DNA of 34,681 nucleotides from Nitrospira sp. GTDB taxonomy: Bacteria; Nitrospirota; Nitrospiria; Nitrospirales; Nitrospiraceae. Numbering within the stretch: the stretch's first letter is position 1; each line of letters opens with the position of its first letter. The position numbers were made by a program, and so were the translations under genes. Under the pieces are notes generated by a model, which worked only from the letters and a program-made list of their open reading frames with translations, searched no databases and was not told the DNA's origin. Below, in pieces: positions 266 to 32,419 of the stretch. The stretch is from the NCBI GenBank assembly GCA_029879905.1, contig JAOUPN010000008.1, positions 1-34,681 on the forward strand, written 5' to 3'.

Positions 266-682
266 GCGGAGGGGAAAAGGACAAGAGAAAGAGCACGAGA
301 TCATGTGGGGGAATTATCCGAACTCCTGCGTCCGATGGCGGCTGAGGGAGTTGCCAAGAATCACAAAGAGAAGATGCGAGCAGCCCGGTCACTCGTTCAC
401 CCACCTTCGCAGGAAGCCACGGCTAGAAGGCCGTGGAGGAATGCGCAGCGGGTGTCCTCCGAAGCCTTGGCGAAGGAGGACATGTTTCCAGCCTTCGTAG
501 CCTGCGGCTACTTCGGCGGAGTAGGCTCGGCGAGGTGTCGCCGAAGACTCAAAAGGAGCCACGGCTGGCAGGCCGTGGGGCTCCACGACATGCTACAGTT
601 TGCGAGGTGATACGAGAATTCTCGGTTGCGTCGTTCTCGCTGTCCCGTGCCGTTATATATGAAGAGTGCTGATGCGTGAGTC
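266..682. other. Spacer before the MHYT/PP2C gene
   Basis: Apart from repeat copy A (399-586), this stretch holds the perfect 12-bp palindrome CGAGAATTCTCG at 613-624 and an AT-rich TTATATAT run at 653-660, about 25 bases before the start at 683. Either could belong to the promoter or operator of the downstream gene, but no clear -35/-10 pair is seen. Confidence 0.4.
399..586 (+). repeat. Multi-hairpin dispersed repeat, copy A
   Basis: This 188-bp element starts with ACCCACCTTCGCAGGAAGCC and ends with GGCCGTGGGGCTCCAC. Near each end is a hairpin of the form CCACGGC-N6-GCCGTGG. The centre carries GTAGCC-tgc-GGCTAC and CTTCGGCG...CGCCGAAG inverted pairs. Related copies lie at 4160-4284, 12272-12494 (inverted) and 27902-27947 (shortened, inverted). 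No convincing protein is encoded. The copy fills most of the spacer before the signalling gene at 683. Confidence 0.85.
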
Positions 683-3508
683 ATGAGCTCCGATACGCTC
701 ATTGGTGAAAATCCAGACCGAATGTTCACATTACCGGGAATTTGCGATCCATGGCTTGCTCTCTGTTCGATGCTGCTGGGTGGCGCGGCTGCTTACGTCA
801 TTCTCAGTATTGCCGAGCGCATGCGCGCGACCGAACAAGGATCCTTCAAAATGCGATGGCTCTCTGTCGGAGCCGTCGCAGGCGGACTTGAGATATGGGC
901 GATCCACTTCGTTGGTAACCTGGCCTTCTGCCCGCCGATTCCATCCACGCAGGATGTTGGCTTCGCCGTTGTTTCCATCCTATCCGCTGGGCTGGCAGGA
1001 GCTGTGGCGGTCTACCTGATCAGCACCCATGACGGGAACCCCCTTCGACTGGTGTCAGGTGGTTTGTTGATGGGTGCATGCCTGCTGGTGACGCATTTCA
1101 CGAGCCTGATGGCGATACATCAGGTGGCAGATATTCAGCACAGCCTGCCTCTTCTTATCTTTTCCGTCGTAGTGATCGTGGGATCGGGTATTGCCGTACT
1201 CCTGGTCGGCGGATGGAATATTCAGTACGGGGATTGGCGGGTAACGGAAAAGGCCAGCGCCATGGGGGTTGCTCTGTCCACCTCCCATTTAGCCGGGATG
1301 ATTCCCGCGTACAGCTTTCCGGGCCTGAGGCCAGGTTCGTCGCCGCCCGGCATTGAAGTGGAGCTCCTTGCGATCGTCGCCGTTTCTCTCTCGACGCTTC
1401 TGGCCATCATCGATCGGCAAGTGACAAGGGCATCACGTCTGGCACGTCACAGCCATGCTCGGTTGTTGGACGCTATCGAGAGTGTTCCCCAAGGATTTTC
1501 GCTCTTCGACGCAGACGACCGTCTGGTGATTTGTAATCGCAAATATCGCGAAGCGGTATCCCAAGCCGGTGTCGCCGTTCAGCCCGGTGAGTCGTTCGAA
1601 TCGATTATCCGTCGTATCGCTGAACGAGGCGACATCCCCGCAGCGAGTAGGAATGTTGAGTCATGGGTGAAAGAGCGGCTTGAGATGCACAACAACCCCC
1701 AAGGACCATACATTCAATACCGCTCCAGCGGTGACTGGCTCCAAATTAATGAGAGAAAGACCCATGACGGCGGTATTGTGGCCATTACCACGGACATCAC
1801 GGCGTTGAAAAAAGCCGAACAGGCCGCTGAGGATGCCAAGGCACGCTTGGCGGATTCGTTAGCGCTGGTAGAAGCGGCAAAAGCCCGCATGCAGGAGGAG
1901 CTCAATGTCGGTCGGGATATTCAGAGGAGTATGCTCCCGAGGGTATTTCCGGCCTTCCCTGATCGGAAGGATCTGGAACTGTATGCGGTACTTGAACCGG
2001 CGCTGGAGGTCGGTGGTGATCTCTATGATTTCTTTCTGCTCGATGAACATCGACTGTGTTTCGTGATCGGCGATGTCTCGGGCAACGGGGTTCCTGCCGC
2101 CCTGTTCATGGCGATGACGAAGATCATGGTGAAAACCAGGGCGATGTCCGATCCCTCGCCCGCGAGTATCGTCACCTATGTGAACGACGCACTCAGCACG
2201 GATAACGACAGCTGTATGTTCGTGACCCTGTACCTGGGCATCCTGAATCTCCGCGATGGGACACTTCTCACGACGAACGCGGGGCATAATCCTCCCTTGT
2301 TGAAACGACGAGACGAACCATTCGAGTGGTTGACGGCTCGGGACGGCCCCATGGTCGGTCCCATGGAAGGGATCGTCTTCAAGGAGAGCACGATTCAATT
2401 GGACCCGGGGGATGAGCTGTTCTTCTACACCGATGGGGTGACCGAAGCCGAAAATGTCCGGCTCGAATTATTCGGTAACGATCGGCTGAAAACGATTCTT
2501 GACCGATCCCGGGCCTCCTCAGTCGTCGACCGCATCGGAGAGGTCATGAACGCGGTAAAGGGCTTTGCCGGTGCGGCTCCGCAGGCGGACGACATCACCA
2601 TGCTGGGGTTGCGGTACCATGGCGTTACCCTGTCAGACGCCTCGGCCGTGGTCTTCCGCCAAACGATGCCGAACCAATTGATGGCCATTCCTGTGCTGCA
2701 GACGGCGTTCGAACAGTATGTGGCCCAATGGGAATGGGCCAAACCACTCATCCCCAGAATCAATATGGCTCTGGATGACCTGCTCAACAATGTCGTGCAG
2801 TATGCGTTCCCCAATGATCCGAGGGAGCATCGTATTGAAGTGACAGGAGAAGTGCGTGACAGATGCGTCATGTTGACCATTACGGACGATGGTATTCCCT
2901 TCAACCCCGTTACGGTTGCGCCTCCGGATTTGTCATTGCTGCTGCATGAGCGTGAGATCGGTGGCTTGGGGATTCACTTGGTGCGTTCCATGTTTGACGA
3001 GGTGGTATATCGTCGCAATGTGGGACGTAACGTCCTGACGTTAAAGAAGAAGCTGGTACCTGAGGCGTCCGCGCCGGTCGGTCGCGACGATGAGGCGGGG
3101 ACCCAAGCATTCGAAGTTCGGCGGTATCCGCAACCACCACGCCAAGACTCAAGGGGGGGAGAGACGAGCGTGAAATCTCGTCAGAGTGGTGCCGTGGTGA
3201 TCGTCACTCCGGAGGATCGCTTCGACACGAACAGTGCATCCGAGATTGAGCGCGTCCTTATGGACCACATTGAGCGTGGGGTAAGGCAGATGGTGTTGGA
3301 TCTCTCTCACATTTCATACATTTCATCGATCGGGCTGCGGGTGATCCTCAGAGTCATATTGACGATGACCCGGGTAGGCGGGAGGATGATGCTTTGTGGG
3401 GGGACCGACCAGGTCTGTACGGTGATCCAATTGAGTGGTGGGCTGATGGTGAGTCTCCATGTTCCCACGCTAGAAGAAGCTCTCTTGAAGGTGCAAGCGG
3501 CAAACTGA
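683..3508 (+). CDS. MHYT-like/PAS/PP2C phosphatase/HATPase/STAS signalling protein
   Basis: This 941-residue protein probably sets the phosphorylation state of an anti-anti-sigma (STAS) partner. Residues 20-245 are hydrophobic and carry degenerate MHYT-type motifs (IWAIHFVGNLAF at 71-82, HFTSLMAI at 138-145, SHLAGMIPAY at 201-210), a proposed metal or gas sensor in the membrane. A PAS domain spans about 255-375, then a short helical linker. The SpoIIE/RsbU-type PP2C domain (about 408-645) keeps its metal-binding acids in EVGGDLYDF (442-450), GDVSGNG (463-469) and ADDITML (635-641). A GHKL ATPase domain (about 660-790) has an N-box at 695-709, DDGIPFNP and GGLGIHLV. A STAS domain (about 833-938) keeps a Ser-Ser pair at 881-882. 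The start has a weak ribosome binding site. A second STAS gene follows 200 bases downstream. Domain calls are secure; the signal sensed and the final target are unknown. Confidence 0.93.
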   Translation: MSSDTLIGENPDRMFTLPGICDPWLALCSMLLGGAAAYVILSIAERMRATEQGSFKMRWLSVGAVAGGLEIWAIHFVGNLAFCPPIPSTQDVGFAVVSILSAGLAGAVAVYLISTHDGNPLRLVSGGLLMGACLLVTHFTSLMAIHQVADIQHSLPLLIFSVVVIVGSGIAVLLVGGWNIQYGDWRVTEKASAMGVALSTSHLAGMIPAYSFPGLRPGSSPPGIEVELLAIVAVSLSTLLAIIDRQVTRASRLARHSHARLLDAIESVPQGFSLFDADDRLVICNRKYREAVSQAGVAVQPGESFESIIRRIAERGDIPAASRNVESWVKERLEMHNNPQGPYIQYRSSGDWLQINERKTHDGGIVAITTDITALKKAEQAAEDAKARLADSLALVEAAKARMQEELNVGRDIQRSMLPRVFPAFPDRKDLELYAVLEPALEVGGDLYDFFLLDEHRLCFVIGDVSGNGVPAALFMAMTKIMVKTRAMSDPSPASIVTYVNDALSTDNDSCMFVTLYLGILNLRDGTLLTTNAGHNPPLLKRRDEPFEWLTARDGPMVGPMEGIVFKESTIQLDPGDELFFYTDGVTEAENVRLELFGNDRLKTILDRSRASSVVDRIGEVMNAVKGFAGAAPQADDITMLGLRYHGVTLSDASAVVFRQTMPNQLMAIPVLQTAFEQYVAQWEWAKPLIPRINMALDDLLNNVVQYAFPNDPREHRIEVTGEVRDRCVMLTITDDGIPFNPVTVAPPDLSLLLHEREIGGLGIHLVRSMFDEVVYRRNVGRNVLTLKKKLVPEASAPVGRDDEAGTQAFEVRRYPQPPRQDSRGGETSVKSRQSGAVVIVTPEDRFDTNSASEIERVLMDHIERGVRQMVLDLSHISYISSIGLRVILRVILTMTRVGGRMMLCGGTDQVCTVIQLSGGLMVSLHVPTLEEALLKVQAAN

Positions 3509-3708
3509 TGCCTCATCAGAGTCGCCGGTACTGTATAGGGATGCCGAACGAGGCCGCCGTTGCAGTATCGACATGCGCGATTTCATCCATAAGAGAGCGG
3601 CGGTTGCGAATAGGACGGCTGATTGAGAAAGAGGTTCTGTCGTCTTCTCGTAGAGTAACGTTCGATTAAACGAGAAAGCCAATCTTTTAAGAAGAAAGGA
3701 GCCGAAAC

Positions 3709-7432: not shown

Positions 7433-8119
7433 ATGGAGACACGGGCGTTGCTGGAAGGCTTGCGATTTACCGATACGTTTTTCCCTGCAGGGGGGTACGC
7501 ATTTTCTTCGGGATTAGAAGCGGCCATACAAGGCGGCGCGGTGAAGGACTCGGAGCAATTGGCCTGCTATGTCGAAGATCTCCTGCGCGGTGGGATGAGC
7601 CGCCGCGAGGTGGTGGCTGCAAAAGTCGCAAGTCATGCGGGGGCAACGGGTATTGTGTCTGAGGCGATCACGATCGACCGCGAGTTGGATGCGACAAAGC
7701 TCAGTCGCGAGTCTCGATCGGCGAGTCGCCAGATGGGGCGCCAGATTATCAAGGTTGCTGTGGATCAAATCAGAGGCCATGCCGTGCTGATTGAGTATCG
7801 CAATGCAGTAGAAGGCGATCAGACGCCGGGTCATGTGGCGGTGAGTTTTGGGCTGACCATGGGCGCTTGTGGGTGGAACGGAGAAGAGACCGCTGCCGCG
7901 TTCCTCTATCAAACGGCTGTCGGATGTGTATCCGCCGCGATGCGATTGAGTCCTGTGGGACAACGGGAGGGGCAGCGTATGCTCGGTCAATGGTTTCCAC
8001 TGATCGATCGTATCAGCCGTGAAGTCGATGCTCGGATCCCCATGTCTTCATGGTCGCCGATTCAGGATATTTATGCCATGCGTCATGGTCAGCTGGAGTG
8101 GAGACTGTTTCGGTCATAA
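7433..8119 (+). CDS. ureF: Urease accessory protein UreF
   Basis: The 228-residue protein is normal length for UreF, the all-helical chaperone that with UreD and UreG forms the complex inserting nickel into apo-urease. The N-terminus shows the diagnostic FTDTFFPAGGYAFSSGLE (about residues 12-29), and the C-terminal half contains the SAAMRLSPVGQREGQRM segment involved in UreG/UreD contacts. AAGGGGGA lies about nine bases before the ATG. It follows ureC after a 208-base repeat-bearing spacer, the widest in the operon, and precedes ureG by 39 bases. Confidence 0.96.
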   Translation: METRALLEGLRFTDTFFPAGGYAFSSGLEAAIQGGAVKDSEQLACYVEDLLRGGMSRREVVAAKVASHAGATGIVSEAITIDRELDATKLSRESRSASRQMGRQIIKVAVDQIRGHAVLIEYRNAVEGDQTPGHVAVSFGLTMGACGWNGEETAAAFLYQTAVGCVSAAMRLSPVGQREGQRMLGQWFPLIDRISREVDARIPMSSWSPIQDIYAMRHGQLEWRLFRS

Positions 8120-8158
8120 GGGCGTAGAGCAGGAAGGAGGAGAAGAGCGGCGCGCCGT

Positions 8159-8866
8159 GTGAGCAATCGCCCATCAGCTCTTCATATTCATATGCACGAC
8201 ATCAATAGGCAACAGCAGTACGGTGATATGCATCCGACGCAGGCCAGGATGAAAGGGATTCCTGTCATCGGAGTCGGCGGACCCGTCGGATCCGGCAAGA
8301 CTGCCCTGGTCGAAGCACTCTGCCGAAATTTGCGTGACCGGTACAGTCTGGCGGCTGTGACGAACGATATTTTTACAAAAATCGATGCCGAAATTCTCAC
8401 GCAACGAGCGGCCTTGCCTATTGACCGGATTGTCGGCGTAGAGACAGGGGGATGTCCCCATACGGCGATTCGGGAGGATGCGTCGCACAATCAAGAAGCC
8501 ATCGATGACTTGCTTCGGTGCCACCCTGACGTCGAGCTCATCTTTTTAGAAAGCGGCGGAGATAATCTTGCAGCGACCTTCAGTCCTGAGCTTGTCGATT
8601 ATGTGATCTACGTGATTGACGTGGCCGGGGGAGACAAAATTCCGCGTAAGGGAGGACCGGGAATTACACGTTCCGATCTCCTGATCATCAATAAGATGGA
8701 CCTGGCTCCGTTCGTTCGTGCAGACCTGTCCGTGATGGATCGGGACACCAGGCGCATGCGTGGCGACCTGCCGTTTGTCTTCACGAATATACTGACCGGG
8801 GAGGGCTTGGAGAGGGTTGTGGCGTGGATCGAGCAACGTGTTCCTCAACAGGCCAGGAAGGCGTGA
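8159..8866 (+). CDS. ureG: Urease accessory GTPase UreG
   Basis: UreG is the SIMIBI GTPase that powers nickel delivery to urease. The 235-residue frame shows the P-loop GPVGSGKT (41-48), [11 protein letters not shown], the metal-binding ETGGCPH motif with Cys99 and His101, [15 protein letters not shown] and the NKMDL guanine-specificity motif. Before the usual family start (around [11 protein letters not shown]) lies an extension with four histidines (HIHMHD and MHP), which may bind nickel. The start is uncertain: GTG at 8159 is about 17 bases past an AGGAGG, and ATG codons at 8228 and 8249 would shorten or remove the extension. Its end overlaps ureD. No ureE is seen in the operon, so a His-bearing UreG could matter. 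Confidence 0.94.
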
Positions 8867-12265: not shown

Positions 12266-12271
12266 AAGGGT

Positions 12272-12494
12272 GTGGAGCCCCACGGCCTGCCAGCCGTGGC
12301 CCCTTTTGAGTCTTCGGCGACACCTCGCCGAGCCTACTCCGCCGAAGTAGCCGCAGGCTACGAAGGCTGGAAGCATGTCCTCCTTTGCCAAGGCTTCGGC
12401 ACGCCGCCCATAGGCTTTGGCCGACGGGTCGGAGGACACCCGCTACGCATTCCTCCACGGCCTTCTAGCCGTGGCTTCCTGCGAAGGCGGGTGA
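12272..12494 (-). repeat. Multi-hairpin dispersed repeat, copy C (longest)
   Basis: An inverted copy of the element at 399-586, about 223 bp. It matches copy A along almost its whole length, including both CCACGGC-N6-GCCGTGG hairpins, but has about 35 extra bases (roughly 12398-12432) in the centre. It occupies the whole spacer between the BtuF-like gene and the DUF71 gene and ends 18 bases before the latter's start. Confidence 0.85.
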
Positions 12495-24584: not shown

Positions 24585-25692
24585 TCGCGGATTCATACAA
24601 TAAGTGCAATTTCTCATCGTCGGCGACTGGACTAAGATGACGGCGTCCAGCCGACTCACTCAACAAAAGGAATTGCACGATGATCCACTACCAGCATCTG
24701 AGCCATGAGGAACGATTCTATATCCACCAGGCGGTCCGCGAGGGCAAATGCAATGTGGAGATTGCCCACGCGCTGGGGCGCCACCCCTCCACGATCAGCC
24801 GAGAGAAGAAGCGGAACATGTGGCCCAGCGCCCATCTGTACACCTATGACTGGGCGAAGTATTTTCACCACCAGCGGCAACGCCGAGCCCAGGCCTGCAA
24901 ACACCGGAAAGTTACCGGACAGACTGAGGCGTTGATGGTGGCATTGCTCAAGCGGTATCTGAGTCCGGAGCAAATCAGCGCCTATCTCGAGACGCATCAC
25001 GCGATCCCCCTCAGCCATGAAACCATCTATCGGTTTATCGACGCCAACCGACACACCCATGGAACCTTGCGCGGATACTTACGCCATGGTGGAAAGCAGC
25101 GGCGCAAACGGTATGGTTCGGGGGCGCGGGCCTCGCGGATTCCCAATCGGACACCGATTGAGGCTCGCCCGCTCATCGTGGCCCAGCGGAAACGAATCGG
25201 GGACTGGGAATGCGATACCCTTGTGGGAGGTGATCGCAAAAGTGCCCTCGTCACCGTGGTGGAGCGCAAGTCCTTGTTCACCCTCTGTGCCCCGGTCCCC
25301 CAGAAAACGGCGGAGGCAGTTCAGGAGGCAATCGTCCGACTTCTTGCGCCGGTGGCACACCAGGTGAAGACGCTGACGTTCGATAACGGGTCCGAATTCA
25401 TGCAGCATGAGCAGATGGCCGCCGCGCTGAAGGCCAGGACCTACTTTGCCACACCGTATGCGTCCTGGGAACGAGGGATCAACGAGAATACCAACGGCCT
25501 GTTGCGCCAATTCTTCCCGAAGCGCACCAACTTCAAGACGGTGACACGCCCGCAGATCGAGCAGGTGCTCTCCCTGCTGAACAACCGGCCGAGAAAAACG
25601 AGGGGCTACAGCACACCCAATGAACTCTTTGCAAAGACGTTTGTCCCCATAATTTCACCCGCAGAAATTGCACTTCTGAGTTGAATTCGCGA
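24585..25692 (+). mobile_element. IS30-family insertion sequence
   Basis: A 1,108-bp element with one transposase gene. The ends form an imperfect inverted repeat: 24585-24614 against the complement of 25663-25692, 24 of 30 bases alike and the inner 13 (AAGTGCAATTTCT) identical. The right end overlaps the last codons of the transposase. No target-site duplication is obvious (GCA before, GTA after), so exact boundaries are uncertain. Confidence 0.85.
24680..25684 (+). CDS. IS30-family transposase
   Basis: The 334-residue protein is full length for an IS30 transposase. The N-terminal helix-turn-helix (YQHLSHEERFYIHQAVREGK, IAHALGRHPSTISRE, residues 4-42) binds the element's ends. The RNase H-like catalytic core has Asp179 in DWECDTLVGG, Asp235 in TFDNGSEF and Glu269 in ERGINENTNG, with the RQFFPK motif that follows. 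No frameshift or early stop is present, so it looks intact. AAAGGA precedes the ATG, and an AATTGCAC directly before the start is the complement of GTGCAATT in the terminal repeats, a possible site for autoregulation. Confidence 0.97.
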   Translation: MIHYQHLSHEERFYIHQAVREGKCNVEIAHALGRHPSTISREKKRNMWPSAHLYTYDWAKYFHHQRQRRAQACKHRKVTGQTEALMVALLKRYLSPEQISAYLETHHAIPLSHETIYRFIDANRHTHGTLRGYLRHGGKQRRKRYGSGARASRIPNRTPIEARPLIVAQRKRIGDWECDTLVGGDRKSALVTVVERKSLFTLCAPVPQKTAEAVQEAIVRLLAPVAHQVKTLTFDNGSEFMQHEQMAAALKARTYFATPYASWERGINENTNGLLRQFFPKRTNFKTVTRPQIEQVLSLLNNRPRKTRGYSTPNELFAKTFVPIISPAEIALLS

Positions 25693-25808: not shown

Positions 25809-26432
25809 TTAGTTCATTTTTCCCGTCGGCATATCACGGGTCTTCTGGTTTTTGGGTGGCTCGGTCATGGCGCCGGTCGGCATGTCTCCACTCCCTGCGG
25901 CGAAGCCGGTACGAATTGCCTTGGCTTTGGTCGCAGACCCTCTTGCCTTCTTTGCGCCACCTTTCTTTGTCATAGCCATGCTCCTGTCTCGTAGGGACTT
26001 GTCCACAGTCATTGCGCGTACTGCTACTGTCATCCGCTTGCTGGCTGTCTTTGCCTTCATGCTCAACCGTCTGTCGGATAGGCGAGATGCCGCTCGGGTT
26101 GCCAGCTTCAGCACGCCGACGTCTCTATCGTCGAGAAGCTTGCTGACGACCCGTGCGGCTTGTGGGCAATCCGGCAACATCGTTGCGGCATGTGCTGCGG
26201 CAACGCGGACAAGCATTGCACGCGACTTCGACGCATCCCCCACAATAGTAATGCCGTCGGTATCACCCATCATACCGGCAAGTGATACCGCTTTGGATGC
26301 CAGTGACACATCAGGGGATGCAGCAAGTTTGCGCAGATGCTGCATGGCGCCGGCTGCCTTCTCGACGAGGGACATATAGTCGGGTTCGTCAACATCGAGC
26401 ATCGCCTTCAGTTTTGTATAGCTAATCGGCAT
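25809..26432 (-). CDS. HEAT-like helical protein with basic, repeat-containing tail
   Basis: The 207-residue product (from ATG at 26432; an adjacent ATG at 26435 is less well spaced from AAAGGAG) starts with MPISYTKLKAMLDVDEPDYMSL. Residues 20-125 are Ala/Leu-rich helices arranged like HEAT or armadillo repeats (LASKAVSLAGMMGDTDGITIV, VRVAAAHAATMLPDCPQ, ARVVSKLLDDRDVGVLKLA). The last third is rich in Lys, Ala and Thr (MTKKGGAKKARGSATKAKAI) and ends with a doubled motif, DMPTGAM and DMPTGKM. No signal peptide. It starts 24 bases after the lectin-protease stop on the same strand, so the two are probably an operon. Function unknown; the helical part may bind the partner protein. Confidence 0.7.
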   Translation of the reverse strand: MPISYTKLKAMLDVDEPDYMSLVEKAAGAMQHLRKLAASPDVSLASKAVSLAGMMGDTDGITIVGDASKSRAMLVRVAAAHAATMLPDCPQAARVVSKLLDDRDVGVLKLATRAASRLSDRRLSMKAKTASKRMTVAVRAMTVDKSLRDRSMAMTKKGGAKKARGSATKAKAIRTGFAAGSGDMPTGAMTEPPKNQKTRDMPTGKMN

Positions 26433-26459
26433 CATCGTCTCCTTTTGGGAACAGCCCAG

Positions 26460-27773
26460 TTACCCGATATTTTGTGTGAACGGGCTGTTGTCCATCGTTT
26501 GTACTTCGCTGGTAACGAGATCGGGAGGTGGGTTCGTAATATTGTTGGTGCCGCTGCCCATCATCAACCTGTCAGTTGGGCTCACATGCGGAAGCCCCAG
26601 GACATGACCGATTTCATGTCCGAGCGTCCATTCGCTCGCAATGGATGCTACCACCGCAGATGGCTGGTTGGCCGGGTGGGCGGCACAACCGTTGAAGCTT
26701 GGATTCGTCGAGCGCACGAAGTAGGCGACGACGTCGTTGGTCCCGACACTGTTGCGGTTCGCCATCAGCTGTGTTTGCTCAGTCGTCACGCTCCCCATCG
26801 TGCAGGCACCCACGTCGAGATCGTTGAGCAGGGGGAGATTCAGCGTTTGGTCGCTCACTCGATGCACGCGTATCCCGTACGTGGCGTAGACATCGATCAT
26901 ATTGTCGACCATCCTGTCGATAGAGAACCTCGTAGGTTGACTGAGTACTTTGACATGTAGCCGCACGGTTGGACGACTCTCCGTCCACCATTTATGCCAG
27001 AGCGCATTGTTCATGCCACGGGCAAATACATCGATCCGACCAAGACTCCAGGACACTGCCGCGGGTGTATTGTCGATGACTCCACCGAGCGAGTCCCAGC
27101 CGCTCCATGCCCCGTTGAACCATTTGTGCCAGAGCGCGTTGTTGGTGCCTTTGACGAAGACATCGAGCCGTCCCGGGGCCCACGAACTTGCCGCCGGACC
27201 GGCGGTCAGTGTGCCGCCAAGGGATTCCCAGTTGTGCCATGTACCGTTAAACCACTTGTGCCAGAGCGCATTGTCCATGCCACGGGCAAAGAGATCGATA
27301 CGCCCCGACGACCACGACACCGCGGACGGCGTGTTGTCGATGACCCCACCGAGTGATTCCCAGCCGCTCCAAGCCCCGTTGAACCACTTGTGCCAGACGG
27401 CATTATTGGTGCCTTTGACGAAGACATCGAGCCGTCCAGGGGCCCATGAACACACAGCTGGACCGGAGGTCAGCGTACCGCCAAGGGATTCCCAGCTGTG
27501 CCAGGTACCGTCGAACCATTTGTGCCAGAGCGCATTGTCCATGCCACGGGCAAAGAGATCGATGCGCCCTGATGACCAGGACACTGCGGCAGGGGGACTG
27601 TCAATCACTCCCCCGAGCGATTCCCAGCCGCTCCATGCGCCGTTGAACCACTTGTGCCAGACGGCGTTGTTGGTGCCCTTGACGAAGACATCGAGTCTCC
27701 CTCCTGCCCATGAACTGACTGCCGGTCCGGCGGTGATGACGCCACCAAGAGATTCCCAGTTGCTCCACGCCAT
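26460..27773 (-). CDS. Lectin-type beta-propeller fused to a metzincin-like zinc protease
   Basis: The 437-residue protein has two parts. Residues 3-266 are six tandem 44-residue blades of the type [20 protein letters not shown], matching PLL/DUF346 lectin-type propellers that bind sugars. Blades alternate between a VKGTNNAVW and an ARGMDNALW form, making three copies of a 264-bp two-blade unit (26976-27767). The C-terminal 170 residues are a protease domain with [11 protein letters not shown], the HExxHxxGxxH zinc motif of metzincins, followed by a Met-turn (DRLMMG). There is no classical signal peptide, so export would need another route. I chose ATG 27773, seven bases after AAGGAG; a GTG at 27779 is too close to it. 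Next gene in the operon: the HEAT-like protein. It may target glycosylated proteins; substrate unknown. Confidence 0.9.
26976..27767 (-). repeat. Three tandem 264-bp units coding six propeller blades
   Basis: Six 132-bp repeats, each coding one 44-residue blade, alternate in an A-B-A-B-A-B order. Units differ at few positions, a sign of recent expansion or homogenisation. The array lies wholly inside the lectin-protease gene. Confidence 0.9.
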
Positions 27774-27901
27774 GCTCACGCTCCTTGTTGAGTTGACCTC
27801 TGTGCCGGTCGTTGCCTCAACGCTGAGGAAGAAAGGTGCCGAGGCAAAAATATACGTATTAGATAGGCTAATTACTCCAGATGAGGGGATTTGTCAAATG
27901 T

Positions 27902-28478: not shown

Positions 28479-29798
28479 TTATTCCACGGATTGTTCCAGC
28501 GGAGTCGTGGAAATCATGATCAAGTCACGCACGAAACTCACAATGTGGTCATGCCAAATATCGTTATGCCCTGCGATTAAATGCGTGTCCACCTGGATAT
28601 TGAGGTAGGGGTTGTTGGGGACGGTTTTCCCCAGGTGAATGAGTTCCGTATTTTCAAAGAGGAATGACCCTGATGCCTGTTGCTCCGCCCAGAGGGTTTG
28701 CAGGGAGCGATAATTAAAATCCTTACTGCGTTTGGTGGAAGCGGTGAGCGGAATAAGGCGGTGTGTGAGATAGGGAGAAAAGTGGCCGACGGTATGTCTG
28801 TCGGCTTGGCCCTCTGCAATGTCCATCGGAATGTCTTTCCCTACCTTCTCGCATGTATGCCGATGAATGGTCGTATGTGTTTCAAAAAATGTGGAAAACA
28901 ATCGCCCAGCTGGAAAAGCCCAGCCGGTTGCTCGATCGGTTTCGGATGTGAGAATAGCCAGTTTCGGCAATTGAGTTCGGAAATAGCCGCGGCAATAGTC
29001 TTGAGAGATGTCGTACAGTGTTGCGTAGCGGAGTGCCTCAAATGCCGGGTTCATCAAGACCACCAGATCGCCCAGGCCATTGGCATTTCCGGTCGATGTT
29101 TTGTGTGTGCGGCTATCGATAAAGCGATCTTCGAGGATTTGTTGGAGTGCCGTATATAAAATCGCACCGCCGAAGCTGTGCCCAATAGTGACAAAGCGAC
29201 TCTTGAGCGGTTGGGGTTTCGCGGCATCCATGCCGGCTTTCGCGTTGACGATTTCTTCCAGCCTCAACAAGACCTCTGTCACGCCTTGTTGCCCAACTTT
29301 ATGGGCCGTGTTCTTCCGGTCCCAGAACGTGATGTGTTTCATTACCGGAACGGTCAGAGATTCTCCCCGCCAGCCGATATATACCCCCAGCACTTTACGC
29401 TTTGTATCGTTGTCTGTTTCAGCCTGAGAGAGATCGGCAAGCAGGTGACGAAAGTCCTGAATGTTGCCGTCTTCAGGGGACGCATTGTGGTGCCAGCCGT
29501 GGATAAAGGTCACAAGCAGCACGTCGTCGACTCCGGCTATCGGTCGATAGGTGTCGAGCATGTTGTGTAATTGTTTGCGATCCCACAATTGCCCCTGATC
29601 ATCAAACTCAATGAACGAGAGATAATATTCCCCTGGCTGTCCCGGTGCATGGTGCTGTACTGCATGATTCGCGCAATCGCCGGATTGGGTATAGGTGCAT
29701 GATTGATAGTTCGTGCGGTAGGGGGAGTTTTGTGCGCATGCAGAAAAGGTCAGTGCGGACAAGACGGTGACAAGGAATAGGCTGCGGGAGATCTTCAT
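28479..29798 (-). CDS. Alpha/beta-hydrolase lipoprotein
   Basis: The product (439-440 residues; two adjacent ATG codons at 29801 and 29798) starts with a lipoprotein signal peptide ending in LTFSAC, with the lipid cysteine at about residue 21-22. The hydrolase fold is marked by VTFIHGWHHNA (oxyanion-hole region) and IGHSFGGA, the G-x-S-x-G nucleophile elbow with Ser near residue 209. A likely acid is the Asp in LTSETDRATGW; the histidine is in the C-terminal third. It is probably an envelope-anchored esterase or lipase. AAGGCGATC lies just before the start. It shares strand with the larger hydrolase at 30155-32419 but is 350 bases away, so they are likely separate units. Confidence 0.85.
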   Translation of the reverse strand: MKISRSLFLVTVLSALTFSACAQNSPYRTNYQSCTYTQSGDCANHAVQHHAPGQPGEYYLSFIEFDDQGQLWDRKQLHNMLDTYRPIAGVDDVLLVTFIHGWHHNASPEDGNIQDFRHLLADLSQAETDNDTKRKVLGVYIGWRGESLTVPVMKHITFWDRKNTAHKVGQQGVTEVLLRLEEIVNAKAGMDAAKPQPLKSRFVTIGHSFGGAILYTALQQILEDRFIDSRTHKTSTGNANGLGDLVVLMNPAFEALRYATLYDISQDYCRGYFRTQLPKLAILTSETDRATGWAFPAGRLFSTFFETHTTIHRHTCEKVGKDIPMDIAEGQADRHTVGHFSPYLTHRLIPLTASTKRSKDFNYRSLQTLWAEQQASGSFLFENTELIHLGKTVPNNPYLNIQVDTHLIAGHNDIWHDHIVSFVRDLIMISTTPLEQSVE

Positions 29799-29801
29799 CA
29801 T

Positions 29802-30154: not shown

Positions 30155-32419
30155 TCATCTTTTCGAGTCAATCGTTGAGGACATATTCTCAACAGCATGT
30201 CCGTTTTCAAACAGCGCCCGATACTTCATGTGGTTAAAGCAGTAGGTGACATAGGCCATCGTGAGAAGGTAGCAGGCGGAGATGGTGATCCCTGCACAAC
30301 CGACAATGGTTGCCTTGTCTGCAATCCAAGCAGCCTGTTTGATGTCTAACCATTGGATGCGTTCTGCGTTCCGAACGTACTCGGGAAGATTCAACCCCGT
30401 GAACACTGAGAACGCAAGCCCTATGCAGCCTCCCGCGAGTCTCGGCCATGCTTTTCGACGGAACCAGCCTTCGGTTTTAAGAGAGAGGCGCCTGCCCTCT
30501 TTTTGTGCCGACTCAAGATCGTAATAGTCTCCTTTGTACTGATCGTCTTGTTTCCCCTCTCTGGTTACCGGAACGTGAAGGGAGAAGAAAGGGGTTTCTT
30601 TGACACGATATTCCCGTTTCTCGTTCAACCAAATCAGAATGCGACGCCAGGCCACCATGCCGCGCACAAGGTTGGCGAATAGGCTCGGACGAGGTTTCCA
30701 TCGACTCCAAAATCCACTTTTGACTCGCTGGCTATTGCGCTGCTCCGTTACAATCATTTCTTGCTGATACGCATGGCCCGGGTTCGGCGCAAGCCAGAGA
30801 AGGATGGCGGCAGCAATGGCGGAGACATAGGAGAGCGCAAATCCGTTCGTCCATAGGCTGATCCAGCCATAACTCAAGAGAATACCGGTCAGTATTGCGG
30901 CTAGGAATGGAATCCGGAAGTAGGCCCATATCAGAGCCGTTTCGTAGACCCCCGGTTGTTGAATAAACGTGGGGTCGAGGAACGTGCCTTTTTGACCGTC
31001 GTCAATGACTTCTTTCACCAGTCGTGTGAAGAGCTCGCGGTCTTTCCAATATTGGACATGTGCAGCTCCTGGTACGGGATAGCGACGGAACACGACATCC
31101 CGAAAGGCGACCTGGGTGGGTTCGTACTTGAATATCTTTCGGTAGTTTTGGGATTCACAGGCAGTATCAAGGTGATGTCCGACCGGGTCCTGTTCGTCGC
31201 ACAGGTTATAGTGCAGGATTTTTTGATCCAATTTGTCCAGCTCAGATTGGTCGAGCCAATTGTCGGCCCAGCTTGGGTCAATGCCGGAAAGTGGCTTCCC
31301 GTTATGTACGTGTTTGCAATCATGAAAGTGGAGTCCCATGTGGCGGTAGTTGTGATGCCAGAGGACATGATACTTGTCGATCGGGGACCCCAGCGAGATA
31401 AAGTGCTTCACATGGTGACGCCAGAGCAGCGGCGGAATCGAAGGCGGATCAGCTGATAAATGGGAAAACCGTGATCTCAGTGTCTCCCAATCCTTCGTTC
31501 CATCAGGAAGGTTCTGTCGAGGTTTGTCACGAATATCGTGAACCAAGCTTCGCCAATTGGTTTCCTCGTCCTGGTCAGGACAACTATCTCGCTCGATATA
31601 GCCAGGAAAGGGAATGGAGTGTGCCGCAGGTCGGATCAGTCCCTCGCGAATATGCTGCGTGGCAAAGGCATAGACCAAGGCATCGAAGCTCAACACCGTA
31701 CCAAGGCTGTGCGCGAGGACGGTAAAAACCGGTGGAGTATAGGGCTCGTTCGCGGTCTTACGTTCAAACCGGCACCAATTCGCATAATCTCGCAGATAAA
31801 TTTCATCCAGCATCCAGTGGAAGCGTCGAACGGCTTGACCTCGCGTGCGTGCGTAGTCGCCGTAGAGATGGATATCGCCGATCACGCGATTAAACACCAG
31901 ATCTTCAAGCTCCGGGGAGATGCGCTTCATGAGCGCCTTGATGGGGATGATTGAGGCATCGATTTCTCGAAGGAGCGGCATGGCCCAAGCCGGCAGCCAG
32001 TTGTCCCCGGTAAAGGGTGACCTCATGCGTTTGACGCGTGCGTTGGCCCATTGCTCAGGGGGGGAGCTAAAGGCTTTTGCATGATCTTGCAGAATATCCG
32101 CCCAATATAGGTCGACAAAACGGAAATTACGGCCGGCCGTACGCGCGGCACGCGTGCCGTCAAAGATGCCCGTATTGCCGGTGGGATCCACAGGGATACC
32201 GCGAAACTCTGACCAGCTGTGTCCTCCGCCGGATTCCCGAATTGATTGGGAGGAGAGATCGGCAGGCATAAGGCCTGCCAGGTCCGGTGAATCGCCCTTT
32301 CGAACCTCTGCAAAACGATGGACAACCTCAACGGTCGTTTCATTGTGGCGTTGTTCTCCGATGCCATGGACCACGACAATGTAGTGGCGAGGGAAGGCGG
32401 ACTGTACGGATGTTGCCAT
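30155..32419 (-). CDS. Large serine-hydrolase-like protein with C-terminal membrane segments
   Basis: The 754-residue product starts with an alpha/beta-hydrolase part: IVVVHGIGEQRHNE (14-27) gives the oxyanion region, and VLAHSLGTVLSFDAL (234-248) carries Ser238 in the nucleophile elbow, A-H-S-L-G instead of the usual G-x-S-x-G. Asp408/Asp411 (NLCDEQDPVGHHLD) and His454 (GAAHVQYW) are candidates for the rest of the triad. Residues about 493-520 and 527-546 are hydrophobic helices, with two more near 668-688 and 712-738, placing the C-terminal region in the membrane and probably leaving the hydrolase in the cytoplasm. GAGG precedes the ATG. Substrate unknown; lipids are plausible. No operon partner. 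Confidence 0.85.
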   Translation of the reverse strand: MATSVQSAFPRHYIVVVHGIGEQRHNETTVEVVHRFAEVRKGDSPDLAGLMPADLSSQSIRESGGGHSWSEFRGIPVDPTGNTGIFDGTRAARTAGRNFRFVDLYWADILQDHAKAFSSPPEQWANARVKRMRSPFTGDNWLPAWAMPLLREIDASIIPIKALMKRISPELEDLVFNRVIGDIHLYGDYARTRGQAVRRFHWMLDEIYLRDYANWCRFERKTANEPYTPPVFTVLAHSLGTVLSFDALVYAFATQHIREGLIRPAAHSIPFPGYIERDSCPDQDEETNWRSLVHDIRDKPRQNLPDGTKDWETLRSRFSHLSADPPSIPPLLWRHHVKHFISLGSPIDKYHVLWHHNYRHMGLHFHDCKHVHNGKPLSGIDPSWADNWLDQSELDKLDQKILHYNLCDEQDPVGHHLDTACESQNYRKIFKYEPTQVAFRDVVFRRYPVPGAAHVQYWKDRELFTRLVKEVIDDGQKGTFLDPTFIQQPGVYETALIWAYFRIPFLAAILTGILLSYGWISLWTNGFALSYVSAIAAAILLWLAPNPGHAYQQEMIVTEQRNSQRVKSGFWSRWKPRPSLFANLVRGMVAWRRILIWLNEKREYRVKETPFFSLHVPVTREGKQDDQYKGDYYDLESAQKEGRRLSLKTEGWFRRKAWPRLAGGCIGLAFSVFTGLNLPEYVRNAERIQWLDIKQAAWIADKATIVGCAGITISACYLLTMAYVTYCFNHMKYRALFENGHAVENMSSTIDSKR

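What the first reader, a model, noticed from the sequence alone, without database searches (positions are those of the whole stretch)
26460..27773. Lectin propeller fused to a metzincin-like protease
A sugar-binding-type propeller in front of a [11 protein letters not shown] protease suggests a glycan-guided protease. There is no classical signal peptide, yet the target should be outside the cell or on other cells. I know of no standard system with this exact layout.
Basis: partly seen in the sequence, partly recalled or inferred. Interest (0 to 1): 0.7.

Follow-up and report, generated by a model that had tools for sequence, protein, structure and literature searches.

The report
Lectin-guided protease with cognate HEAT partner
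The gene really encodes a sugar-binding propeller fused to a zinc protease, but it is half of a mobile two-gene unit found from Nitrospira to Streptomyces: the same protease, with interchangeable cell-surface-binding heads, is nearly always followed by a small HEAT-repeat protein that probably keeps it silent inside the cell that makes it.

Summary
Confirmed and extended. The gene at 26460-27773(-) encodes 437 aa: six PLL-type lectin propeller blades plus a complete metzincin catalytic domain, with no signal peptide or propeptide. Loci fetched with the protease as query had this HEAT gene directly downstream in 87 of 87 close relatives, across ten bacterial phyla and one archaeal bin. In the window's family, strong HEAT partners occur only in the six protease-bearing genomes. 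Between three congeners the two genes are the only extended shared DNA, so the pair is a mobile cassette. The propeller is one of about 14 interchangeable N-terminal heads. One Sec-secreted relative lacks the HEAT gene. HEAT partners of PLL-type proteases carry Met-Pro-Gly-Glu or Met-Pro-Thr-Gly repeat tails (11 of 14, against 0 of 74 others), and methionine side chains are known to occupy PLL sugar sites in crystals. Best reading: a polymorphic-toxin-like targeted protease whose HEAT partner inhibits it in the producer, and whose tail may plug the lectin. Pairing and mobility are shown; inhibition, plugging and toxicity are inferred.

The parts
26460..27773 (-). Gene 1: PLL-propeller/metzincin protein, 437 aa, start ATG at 27773, stop 26460-26462
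   Evidence: orthologues L003, L004 at 83-84% identity over the full length
26976..27773 (-). Six PLL/DUF346 propeller blades (residues 1-266); the residue at the PHL Thr194 sugar-site position alternates T-M-T-M-T-M
   Evidence: Pfam PF03984; PDB lectins PLL2/PHL; blade residues; site definition from PMC5584973
26463..26975 (-). Metzincin catalytic domain (residues 267-437), no propeptide
   Evidence: A5 alignment; AlphaFold2 pLDDT 96.3; Foldseek E 6.8e-8 to fragilysin; VIA Z 14.5 to adamalysin-type venom protease
26586..26618 (-). Zinc site [11 protein letters not shown] (H386, E387, H390, H396); Met-turn Met at residue 404 lies just downstream
   Evidence: H, E, H, H and Met each identical in 87 of 87 relatives
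26685..26804 (-). Stretch holding the invariant cysteine pair Cys324 and Cys363 (probable disulfide)
   Evidence: 87 of 87 sequences; also present in remote relatives L130, L131, L160, L170, L015
26434..26445 (-). Ribosome-binding site region (AAAAGGAGACG) of gene 2, within the 24-bp gap
   Evidence: sequence
25809..26435 (-). Gene 2: HEAT-repeat partner, 208 aa, no signal peptide; invariant Glu17 and Tyr20 in the first inter-helix loop
   Evidence: Pfam HEAT_2 E 1.3e-4; AlphaFold2 body pLDDT mostly above 93; HEAT fold Z 13.7; loop conservation
25812..25961 (-). Disordered C-terminal tail of gene 2 (about residues 159-208) with two MPTG motifs at 25872-25883 and 25821-25832
   Evidence: sequence; pLDDT 50-69; tail/module table

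Best explanation
A mobile two-gene, polymorphic-toxin-like module. Gene 1 is a leaderless metzincin protease with an interchangeable N-terminal recognition head, here a six-bladed PLL-type lectin propeller that probably directs it to fucosylated or O-methylated glycans. Gene 2 is its dedicated HEAT-repeat partner. Because gene 1 has neither signal peptide nor propeptide, it would be active as soon as it is made in the cytoplasm. The HEAT protein replaces the missing propeptide by binding the catalytic domain in trans; the invariant acidic-Glu-x-x-Tyr loop is a candidate plug for the zinc cleft. In PLL-type systems the HEAT protein also carries a tail of Met-Pro-Gly-Glu or Met-Pro-Thr-Gly repeats, whose methionines would occupy the propeller's hydrophobic sugar pockets, so head and warhead are both silenced until the complex leaves the cell (by lysis or an unknown route) and meets multivalent glycan. 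Shown: domains, predicted fold, invariant active site, pairing, mobility, head swapping, raw tail-head association. Inferred: proteolytic activity, inhibition by HEAT, tail plugging, target and release.
For: All 87 loci of the close family have the HEAT gene directly downstream on the same strand. In 172 family genomes, HEAT partners above 200 bits occur in exactly the six protease-bearing genomes; the next best is 45 bits. No other gene is conserved next to the pair outside Algoriphagus. Distances of the two proteins correlate (Mantel r 0.50, maximum of 2000 permutations 0.26). Between three congeners the only extended shared DNA is the two genes. Heads swap while protease and HEAT stay: 15 classes, 18 changes on the tree, including an Rhs/YD-repeat protein (L068). 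L062 and L087 are the bare catalytic domain almost from the start codon, still with HEAT. L170, with a Sec-type signal peptide, has no HEAT gene. HEAT repeats are known immunity proteins (PMC3482391). Tail: 11 of 14 PLL-type against 0 of 74 others, Fisher 7e-11 without the window. Met occupies PLL-family sugar sites in crystals (PMC5584973, PMC12203525). DUF5648, one of the heads, occurs in Bacteroidales toxins that target O-antigen (PMC12853789).
Against: No experiment shows activity, toxicity or inhibition. No secretion or lysis genes are linked, so the exit route is unknown. The protease is unusually conserved (mean 60% identity) while HEAT is not (34%), unlike a fast arms-race toxin. The HEAT protein has no signal peptide, so it could not protect kin from a protease that acts outside cells. 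The tail-head association rests on few independent events: the phylogeny-aware test has only 3 pairs on well-supported branches and is not significant, and L093 and L080 lack the repeats. The contrast between Sec-secreted and HEAT-less is a single case, and two remote leaderless relatives (L015, L016) also lack HEAT.
Confidence: 0.5

Rival explanations
1. The HEAT protein is a dedicated folding or export chaperone for the leaderless protease rather than an inhibitor, as CpaB is for the glycan-specific adamalysin-like protease CpaA of Acinetobacter.
For: CpaA/CpaB is a real precedent: adjacent genes, glycan-specific adamalysin-like protease, partner needed for folding or secretion (PMC6299215); a chaperone-substrate complex (6o38) is among the structural matches (Z 13.3). 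The Sec-secreted relative L170 lacks HEAT, which a non-classical export chaperone would also explain.
Against: No secretion machinery is linked. The HEAT gene is kept from Bacteroidota to Paenibacillus and an archaeal bin, which share no obvious export system. CpaA leaves through the T2SS, whereas these proteases have no signal peptide.
Confidence: 0.2
2. Toxin-immunity pair in the strict sense: the protease enters the cytoplasm of a target bacterium and the HEAT protein protects kin recipients.
For: One homologue is the C-terminal domain of an Rhs/YD protein (L068), the classic polymorphic-toxin carrier; Imm-HEAT is a described immunity class; strict one-to-one pairing.
Against: Most heads are surface or glycan binders without translocation parts. 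The invariant Cys pair suggests action in an oxidising place. L170 is Sec-secreted without HEAT. The constant C-terminus with variable N-terminus is the reverse of the usual polymorphism.
Confidence: 0.2
3. An ordinary glycan-targeted scavenging or host-interaction protease whose neighbouring HEAT gene serves an unrelated housekeeping role.
For: PLL-type propellers are fused to many enzymes in the Nitrospira family (papain-like, subtilase, tyrosinase-like), so a propeller alone says little.
Against: 87 of 87 linkage across phyla, one-to-one presence in the family, and cassette boundaries that include both genes.
Confidence: 0.07

Closest known systems
PLL-family seven-bladed propeller lectins of Photorhabdus (PLL, PLL2, PHL)
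   Same: W-motif/DUF346 blades; Trp-lined hydrophobic sugar sites; no signal peptide (PMC12203525)
   Different: Six repeats here, fused to a protease; loops forming the polar (galactose) sites are shortened; the Thr site residue is replaced by Met in blades 2, 4 and 6
Fragilysin (BFT) and adamalysin-type metzincins
   Same: HExxHxxGxxH zinc site, Met-turn, overall catalytic fold
   Different: About 12-20% identity; no propeptide or signal peptide; dedicated HEAT partner gene
CpaA/CpaB of Acinetobacter
   Same: Adamalysin-like glycan-specific protease with a dedicated partner encoded with it
   Different: CpaA is exported by the T2SS; CpaB is described as a chaperone (PMC6299215); nothing read there calls it a HEAT-repeat protein
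Polymorphic toxin systems with metallopeptidase toxins (Tox-MPTase1-5) and Imm-HEAT (PMC3482391)
   Same: C-terminal effector, adjacent small partner gene, an Rhs-carried member, horizontal mobility
   Different: Effector constant and N-terminal head variable; no metzincin/HEAT combination is listed in the passages read
Bacteroidales secreted antimicrobial proteins (BSAPs)
   Same: Glycan-receptor-binding domain joined to a toxic domain; the DUF5648 head is shared (PMC12853789)
   Different: BSAPs are MACPF pore formers, not proteases; no HEAT partner is mentioned in the passages read

Membership tests
Metzincin metallopeptidases | HExxHxxGxxH/D zinc motif with three His and the catalytic Glu | tested here: met
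   [15 protein letters not shown] each 87 of 87; the Gly in 80 of 87 relatives
Metzincin metallopeptidases | Met-turn and metzincin fold | tested here: met
   Met 87 of 87; predicted fold Z 14.5, rmsd 3.1, 158 residues aligned to 6x5x
Metzincin metallopeptidases | Zinc-dependent proteolysis | not testable with these tools
   needs an enzyme assay
Matrixin family M10 (Pfam PF00413) | Score above the curated family cut-off | tested here: not met
   18.5 bits against 24 for the window protein; a metzincin, but not filed as M10 (a few relatives score slightly above 24)
PLL-type lectins / DUF346 (PF03984) | W-motif blade repeats above cut-off | tested here: met
   75 bits against 22, six stretches; PLL2 E 3.7e-134
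PLL-type lectins / DUF346 (PF03984) | Seven blades | tested here: not met
   six repeats; a six-bladed variant; the propeller itself was not modelled
PLL-type lectins / DUF346 (PF03984) | Hydrophobic sugar-site residues (Thr plus two Trp per site) | tested here: inconclusive
   both Trp present in the blade sequence; Thr in blades 1, 3, 5 and Met in 2, 4, 6
PLL-type lectins / DUF346 (PF03984) | Sugar binding | not testable with these tools
   needs a glycan array or ITC
Polymorphic toxin system | C-terminal effector domain with an adjacent partner gene | tested here: met
   87 of 87
Polymorphic toxin system | Constant N-terminal delivery part with variable C-terminal toxin | tested here: not met
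   reverse polarity: constant C-terminus, about 14 N-terminal head classes
Polymorphic toxin system | Toxicity neutralised by the partner | not testable with these tools
   needs co-expression experiments
HEAT-repeat proteins (Imm-HEAT as a functional class) | HEAT helical-repeat fold | tested here: met
   HEAT_2 E 1.3e-4, below the Pfam cut-off as a single sequence; profile E 3.8e-31 to alphaRep; predicted fold Z 13.7
HEAT-repeat proteins (Imm-HEAT as a functional class) | Neutralises a cognate toxin | not testable with these tools
   needs binding and inhibition assays
CpaA/CpaB-like protease-chaperone pair | Partner required for folding or T2SS export | not testable with these tools
   no signal peptide on the protease and no linked secretion genes, but export was not assayed
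Known anti-phage defence systems (PADLOC) | Match to a PADLOC model | tested here: not met
   no hits for either gene

The most novel reading that the evidence does not exclude
A previously undescribed, phylum-crossing mobile weapon class: one highly conserved leaderless metzincin warhead with interchangeable surface-recognition heads, paired with a bifunctional HEAT inhibitor whose body silences the protease and whose repeat tail is matched to, and plugs, the particular head (Met-repeat peptides as sugar mimics for PLL propellers).
Probability: 0.3. Interest if true: 0.85.

Novelty: new variant of a known kind. Interest (0 to 1): 0.62.

Why it matters
If right, it defines a widespread but rare (about 1% of sampled genomes) protease module that bacteria retarget by swapping heads, supplies a trans-acting inhibitor in place of a propeptide, and offers a testable case of peptides acting as glycan mimics for a lectin. 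The heads would be candidate probes for surface glycans, and the HEAT partners would be natural metzincin inhibitors.

Tried and rejected
Viral contigs with the protease domain: none; phage records with the whole protein: none, so not a phage-borne system in those collections. PADLOC: no match. NCBIfam: nothing above cut-off. Conserved neighbours: no secretion-type gene recurred among the clusters listed. The idea that the propeller is essential to the system was rejected, because heads are swapped or absent. The idea that MPGE repeats are common in these genomes was rejected: in 15 genomes the repeats were found in the HEAT tails plus two sites elsewhere that look like chance. Full-text searches found no description of the pair, but subscription papers are not held.

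Full report
What is there. The reading frame at 26460-27773 on the minus strand is real and correctly bounded. ATG at 27773 follows AAGGAG; the product is 437 aa. Residues 1-266 are six PLL-type propeller blades: Pfam DUF346, six stretches, E 3.7e-21, and solved Photorhabdus lectins PLL2 and PHL. Residues 267-437 form a complete metzincin catalytic domain. The window protein scores below Pfam's matrixin cut-off. The structure predicted with 42 aligned sequences has pLDDT 96.3; Foldseek's best matches are fragilysins (E 6.8e-8), and VIA-align gives Z 14.5, rmsd 3.1 over 158 residues to an adamalysin-type venom protease. The three zinc histidines, the catalytic Glu, the Met-turn Met and a cysteine pair are identical in all 87 relatives. 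The cysteine pair is also kept in remote relatives, which suggests a disulfide and thus work in an oxidising place.

The missing half. Twenty-four bases downstream, with its own ribosome site, lies a 208-aa HEAT-repeat gene (25809-26435). It first drew attention because plasmid relatives of the protease in Streptomyces avidinii and Spirosoma, which have no PLL propeller, also had a HEAT gene next door. A scan of 84,980 species genomes using only the protease domain as query found 109 relatives; 80 were kept. With seven loci from other searches, 87 of 87 have the HEAT gene directly downstream on the same strand; two of these 87 are the same genomes seen twice (L028/L010 and L046/L018). By the record titles the carriers span Actinomycetota, Pseudomonadota, Bacteroidota, Bacillota, Nitrospirota, Cyanobacteriota, Chloroflexota, Acidobacteriota, Myxococcota, Planctomycetota and one Methanoperedens bin (contamination of that bin was not tested). 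In the reverse direction, in 172 genomes of the window's family the HEAT profile scores above 200 bits in exactly the six genomes that carry the protease, and at most 45 bits elsewhere. Remote relatives L130 and L160 also have a HEAT gene downstream.

The unit is mobile. Comparing the window with the homologous regions of two congeners, the only extended shared DNA is 25811-27773 in one and 25809-27834 in the other, that is the two genes, at about 75% identity; the flanks are unrelated (a 60-bp repeat elsewhere in the window also matches one of them). Outside Algoriphagus, where synteny is vertical, no other neighbour recurs in a way that suggests a functional link, and no secretion genes stand out. 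The module is rare: 5 of 396 Nitrospirota by strong match, 4 of 395 genomes of the Streptomyces class, 5 of 295 in an Arthrobacter-containing family, 4 of 393 in a Streptomyces genus sample.

Heads are interchangeable. The 87 loci carry LGFP repeats (32), PLL propellers (13), DUF6623 (11), FG-GAP-like propellers (8), other propeller types, B-lectin (2), and single cases of BTRD1, DUF5648, a Cys-rich repeat, an Rhs/YD-repeat protein of 2110 aa, and others; four have no head or only a short stub. Some of these classes come from motif rules rather than Pfam hits. The tree of protease domains needs 18 head changes. The window's PLL clade is separate from the actinobacterial PLL clade, inside which one member is Rhs-headed and one has another propeller. 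DUF5648 was recently proposed as a receptor-binding domain of Bacteroidales toxins that target O-antigen (PMC12853789). In other Nitrospira-family genomes, PLL-type propellers sit on papain-like, subtilase-like and tyrosinase-like enzymes (read from the sequences), so the propeller is a generic module.

What the HEAT protein probably does. The protease has no signal peptide (crude hydropathy check) and no propeptide; in two Paenibacillus species the whole protein is the catalytic domain (L062, L087). A metzincin made this way would be active in the cytosol. The only Sec-type relative found, L170 in Streptomyces, has a signal peptide and no HEAT gene within the 1.5 kb fetched: one case, but the direction expected if HEAT is a cytosolic safety catch. 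Two remote PG-binding relatives (L015, L016) lack HEAT without a signal peptide. HEAT repeats are a recognised immunity scaffold in polymorphic toxin systems (PMC3482391). In 41 aligned partners, a loop between the first two helices has an acidic residue, an invariant Glu (17) and an invariant Tyr (20), a candidate for entering the zinc cleft; this is inference.

The tail. HEAT partners of PLL-type proteases carry disordered tails with repeated MPGE (Actinomycetota, one Chloroflexota) or two MPTG motifs (Nitrospira): 10 of 13 plus the window, against 0 of 74 for other heads (Fisher 7e-11). Of the three exceptions, L042 has the MPGE codons in another frame, L080 has a different Gly-rich tail, and L093 has none. 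The two members nested in the actinobacterial PLL clade that lost the propeller also lack the tail. The phylogeny-aware test has too few independent pairs to be significant, so this is an association with a plausible mechanism, not proof. The mechanism comes from the lectin literature: in PHL crystals, two fucose-type sites are filled by methionine side chains (Met60 of a neighbour; Met1 followed by Gln-Pro), and in PLL3 the N-terminal Met sits in a site (PMC5584973, PMC12203525). A tail of Met-Pro repeats is therefore a credible multivalent plug for the propeller.

Commitment. Most likely the pair is a polymorphic-toxin-like, glycan-directed protease with a HEAT partner that silences it in the producer (0.5). 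An export chaperone on the CpaB model (0.2) and a strict toxin-immunity pair acting in recipient cytoplasm (0.2) remain open. That the two genes form one heritable unit I hold at above 0.95.

Noticed in passing
L170 (Streptomyces genome G1363), 1501-3552 minus strand: Related protease with a Sec-type signal peptide and a propeller-like repeat head, but no HEAT gene within 1.5 kb: a natural control for the role of HEAT.
   Followed up: partly
L015, L016 (other genomes of the window's family): Remote relatives with a PG_binding_1 head and no HEAT gene; a different 259-aa open frame lies downstream in L015.
   Followed up: partly
L099, HEAT gene 7523-8326: The HEAT partner of the BTRD1-headed protease has its own acidic repeat tail (two FDDR-TE-SDQAEDPDEFG units), perhaps another head-matched tail.
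   Followed up: no
L005-L007, L008, L011, L017, L019: In related genomes, PLL-type propellers are fused to papain-like, subtilase-like and tyrosinase-like enzymes; L017 and L019 appear to have signal peptides.
   Followed up: partly
window 24680-25684 (+): Apparently complete IS30-like transposase gene (HTH_38 plus rve) just beyond the HEAT gene, consistent with a mobile neighbourhood.
   Followed up: no
window 527-586 and 12271-12331: A roughly 60-bp repeat that also occurs twice near the cassette in congener G108 (L162), in inverted orientations.
   Followed up: no
window 28479-29801 (-) and 30155-32419 (-): Lipoprotein-like alpha/beta-hydrolase candidate and a large protein without any Pfam hit, upstream of the cassette; not part of the shared two-gene block.
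   Followed up: no
L038: An FG-GAP-headed copy of the module in a Candidatus Methanoperedens bin: a possible transfer to archaea, or a binning error.
   Followed up: no
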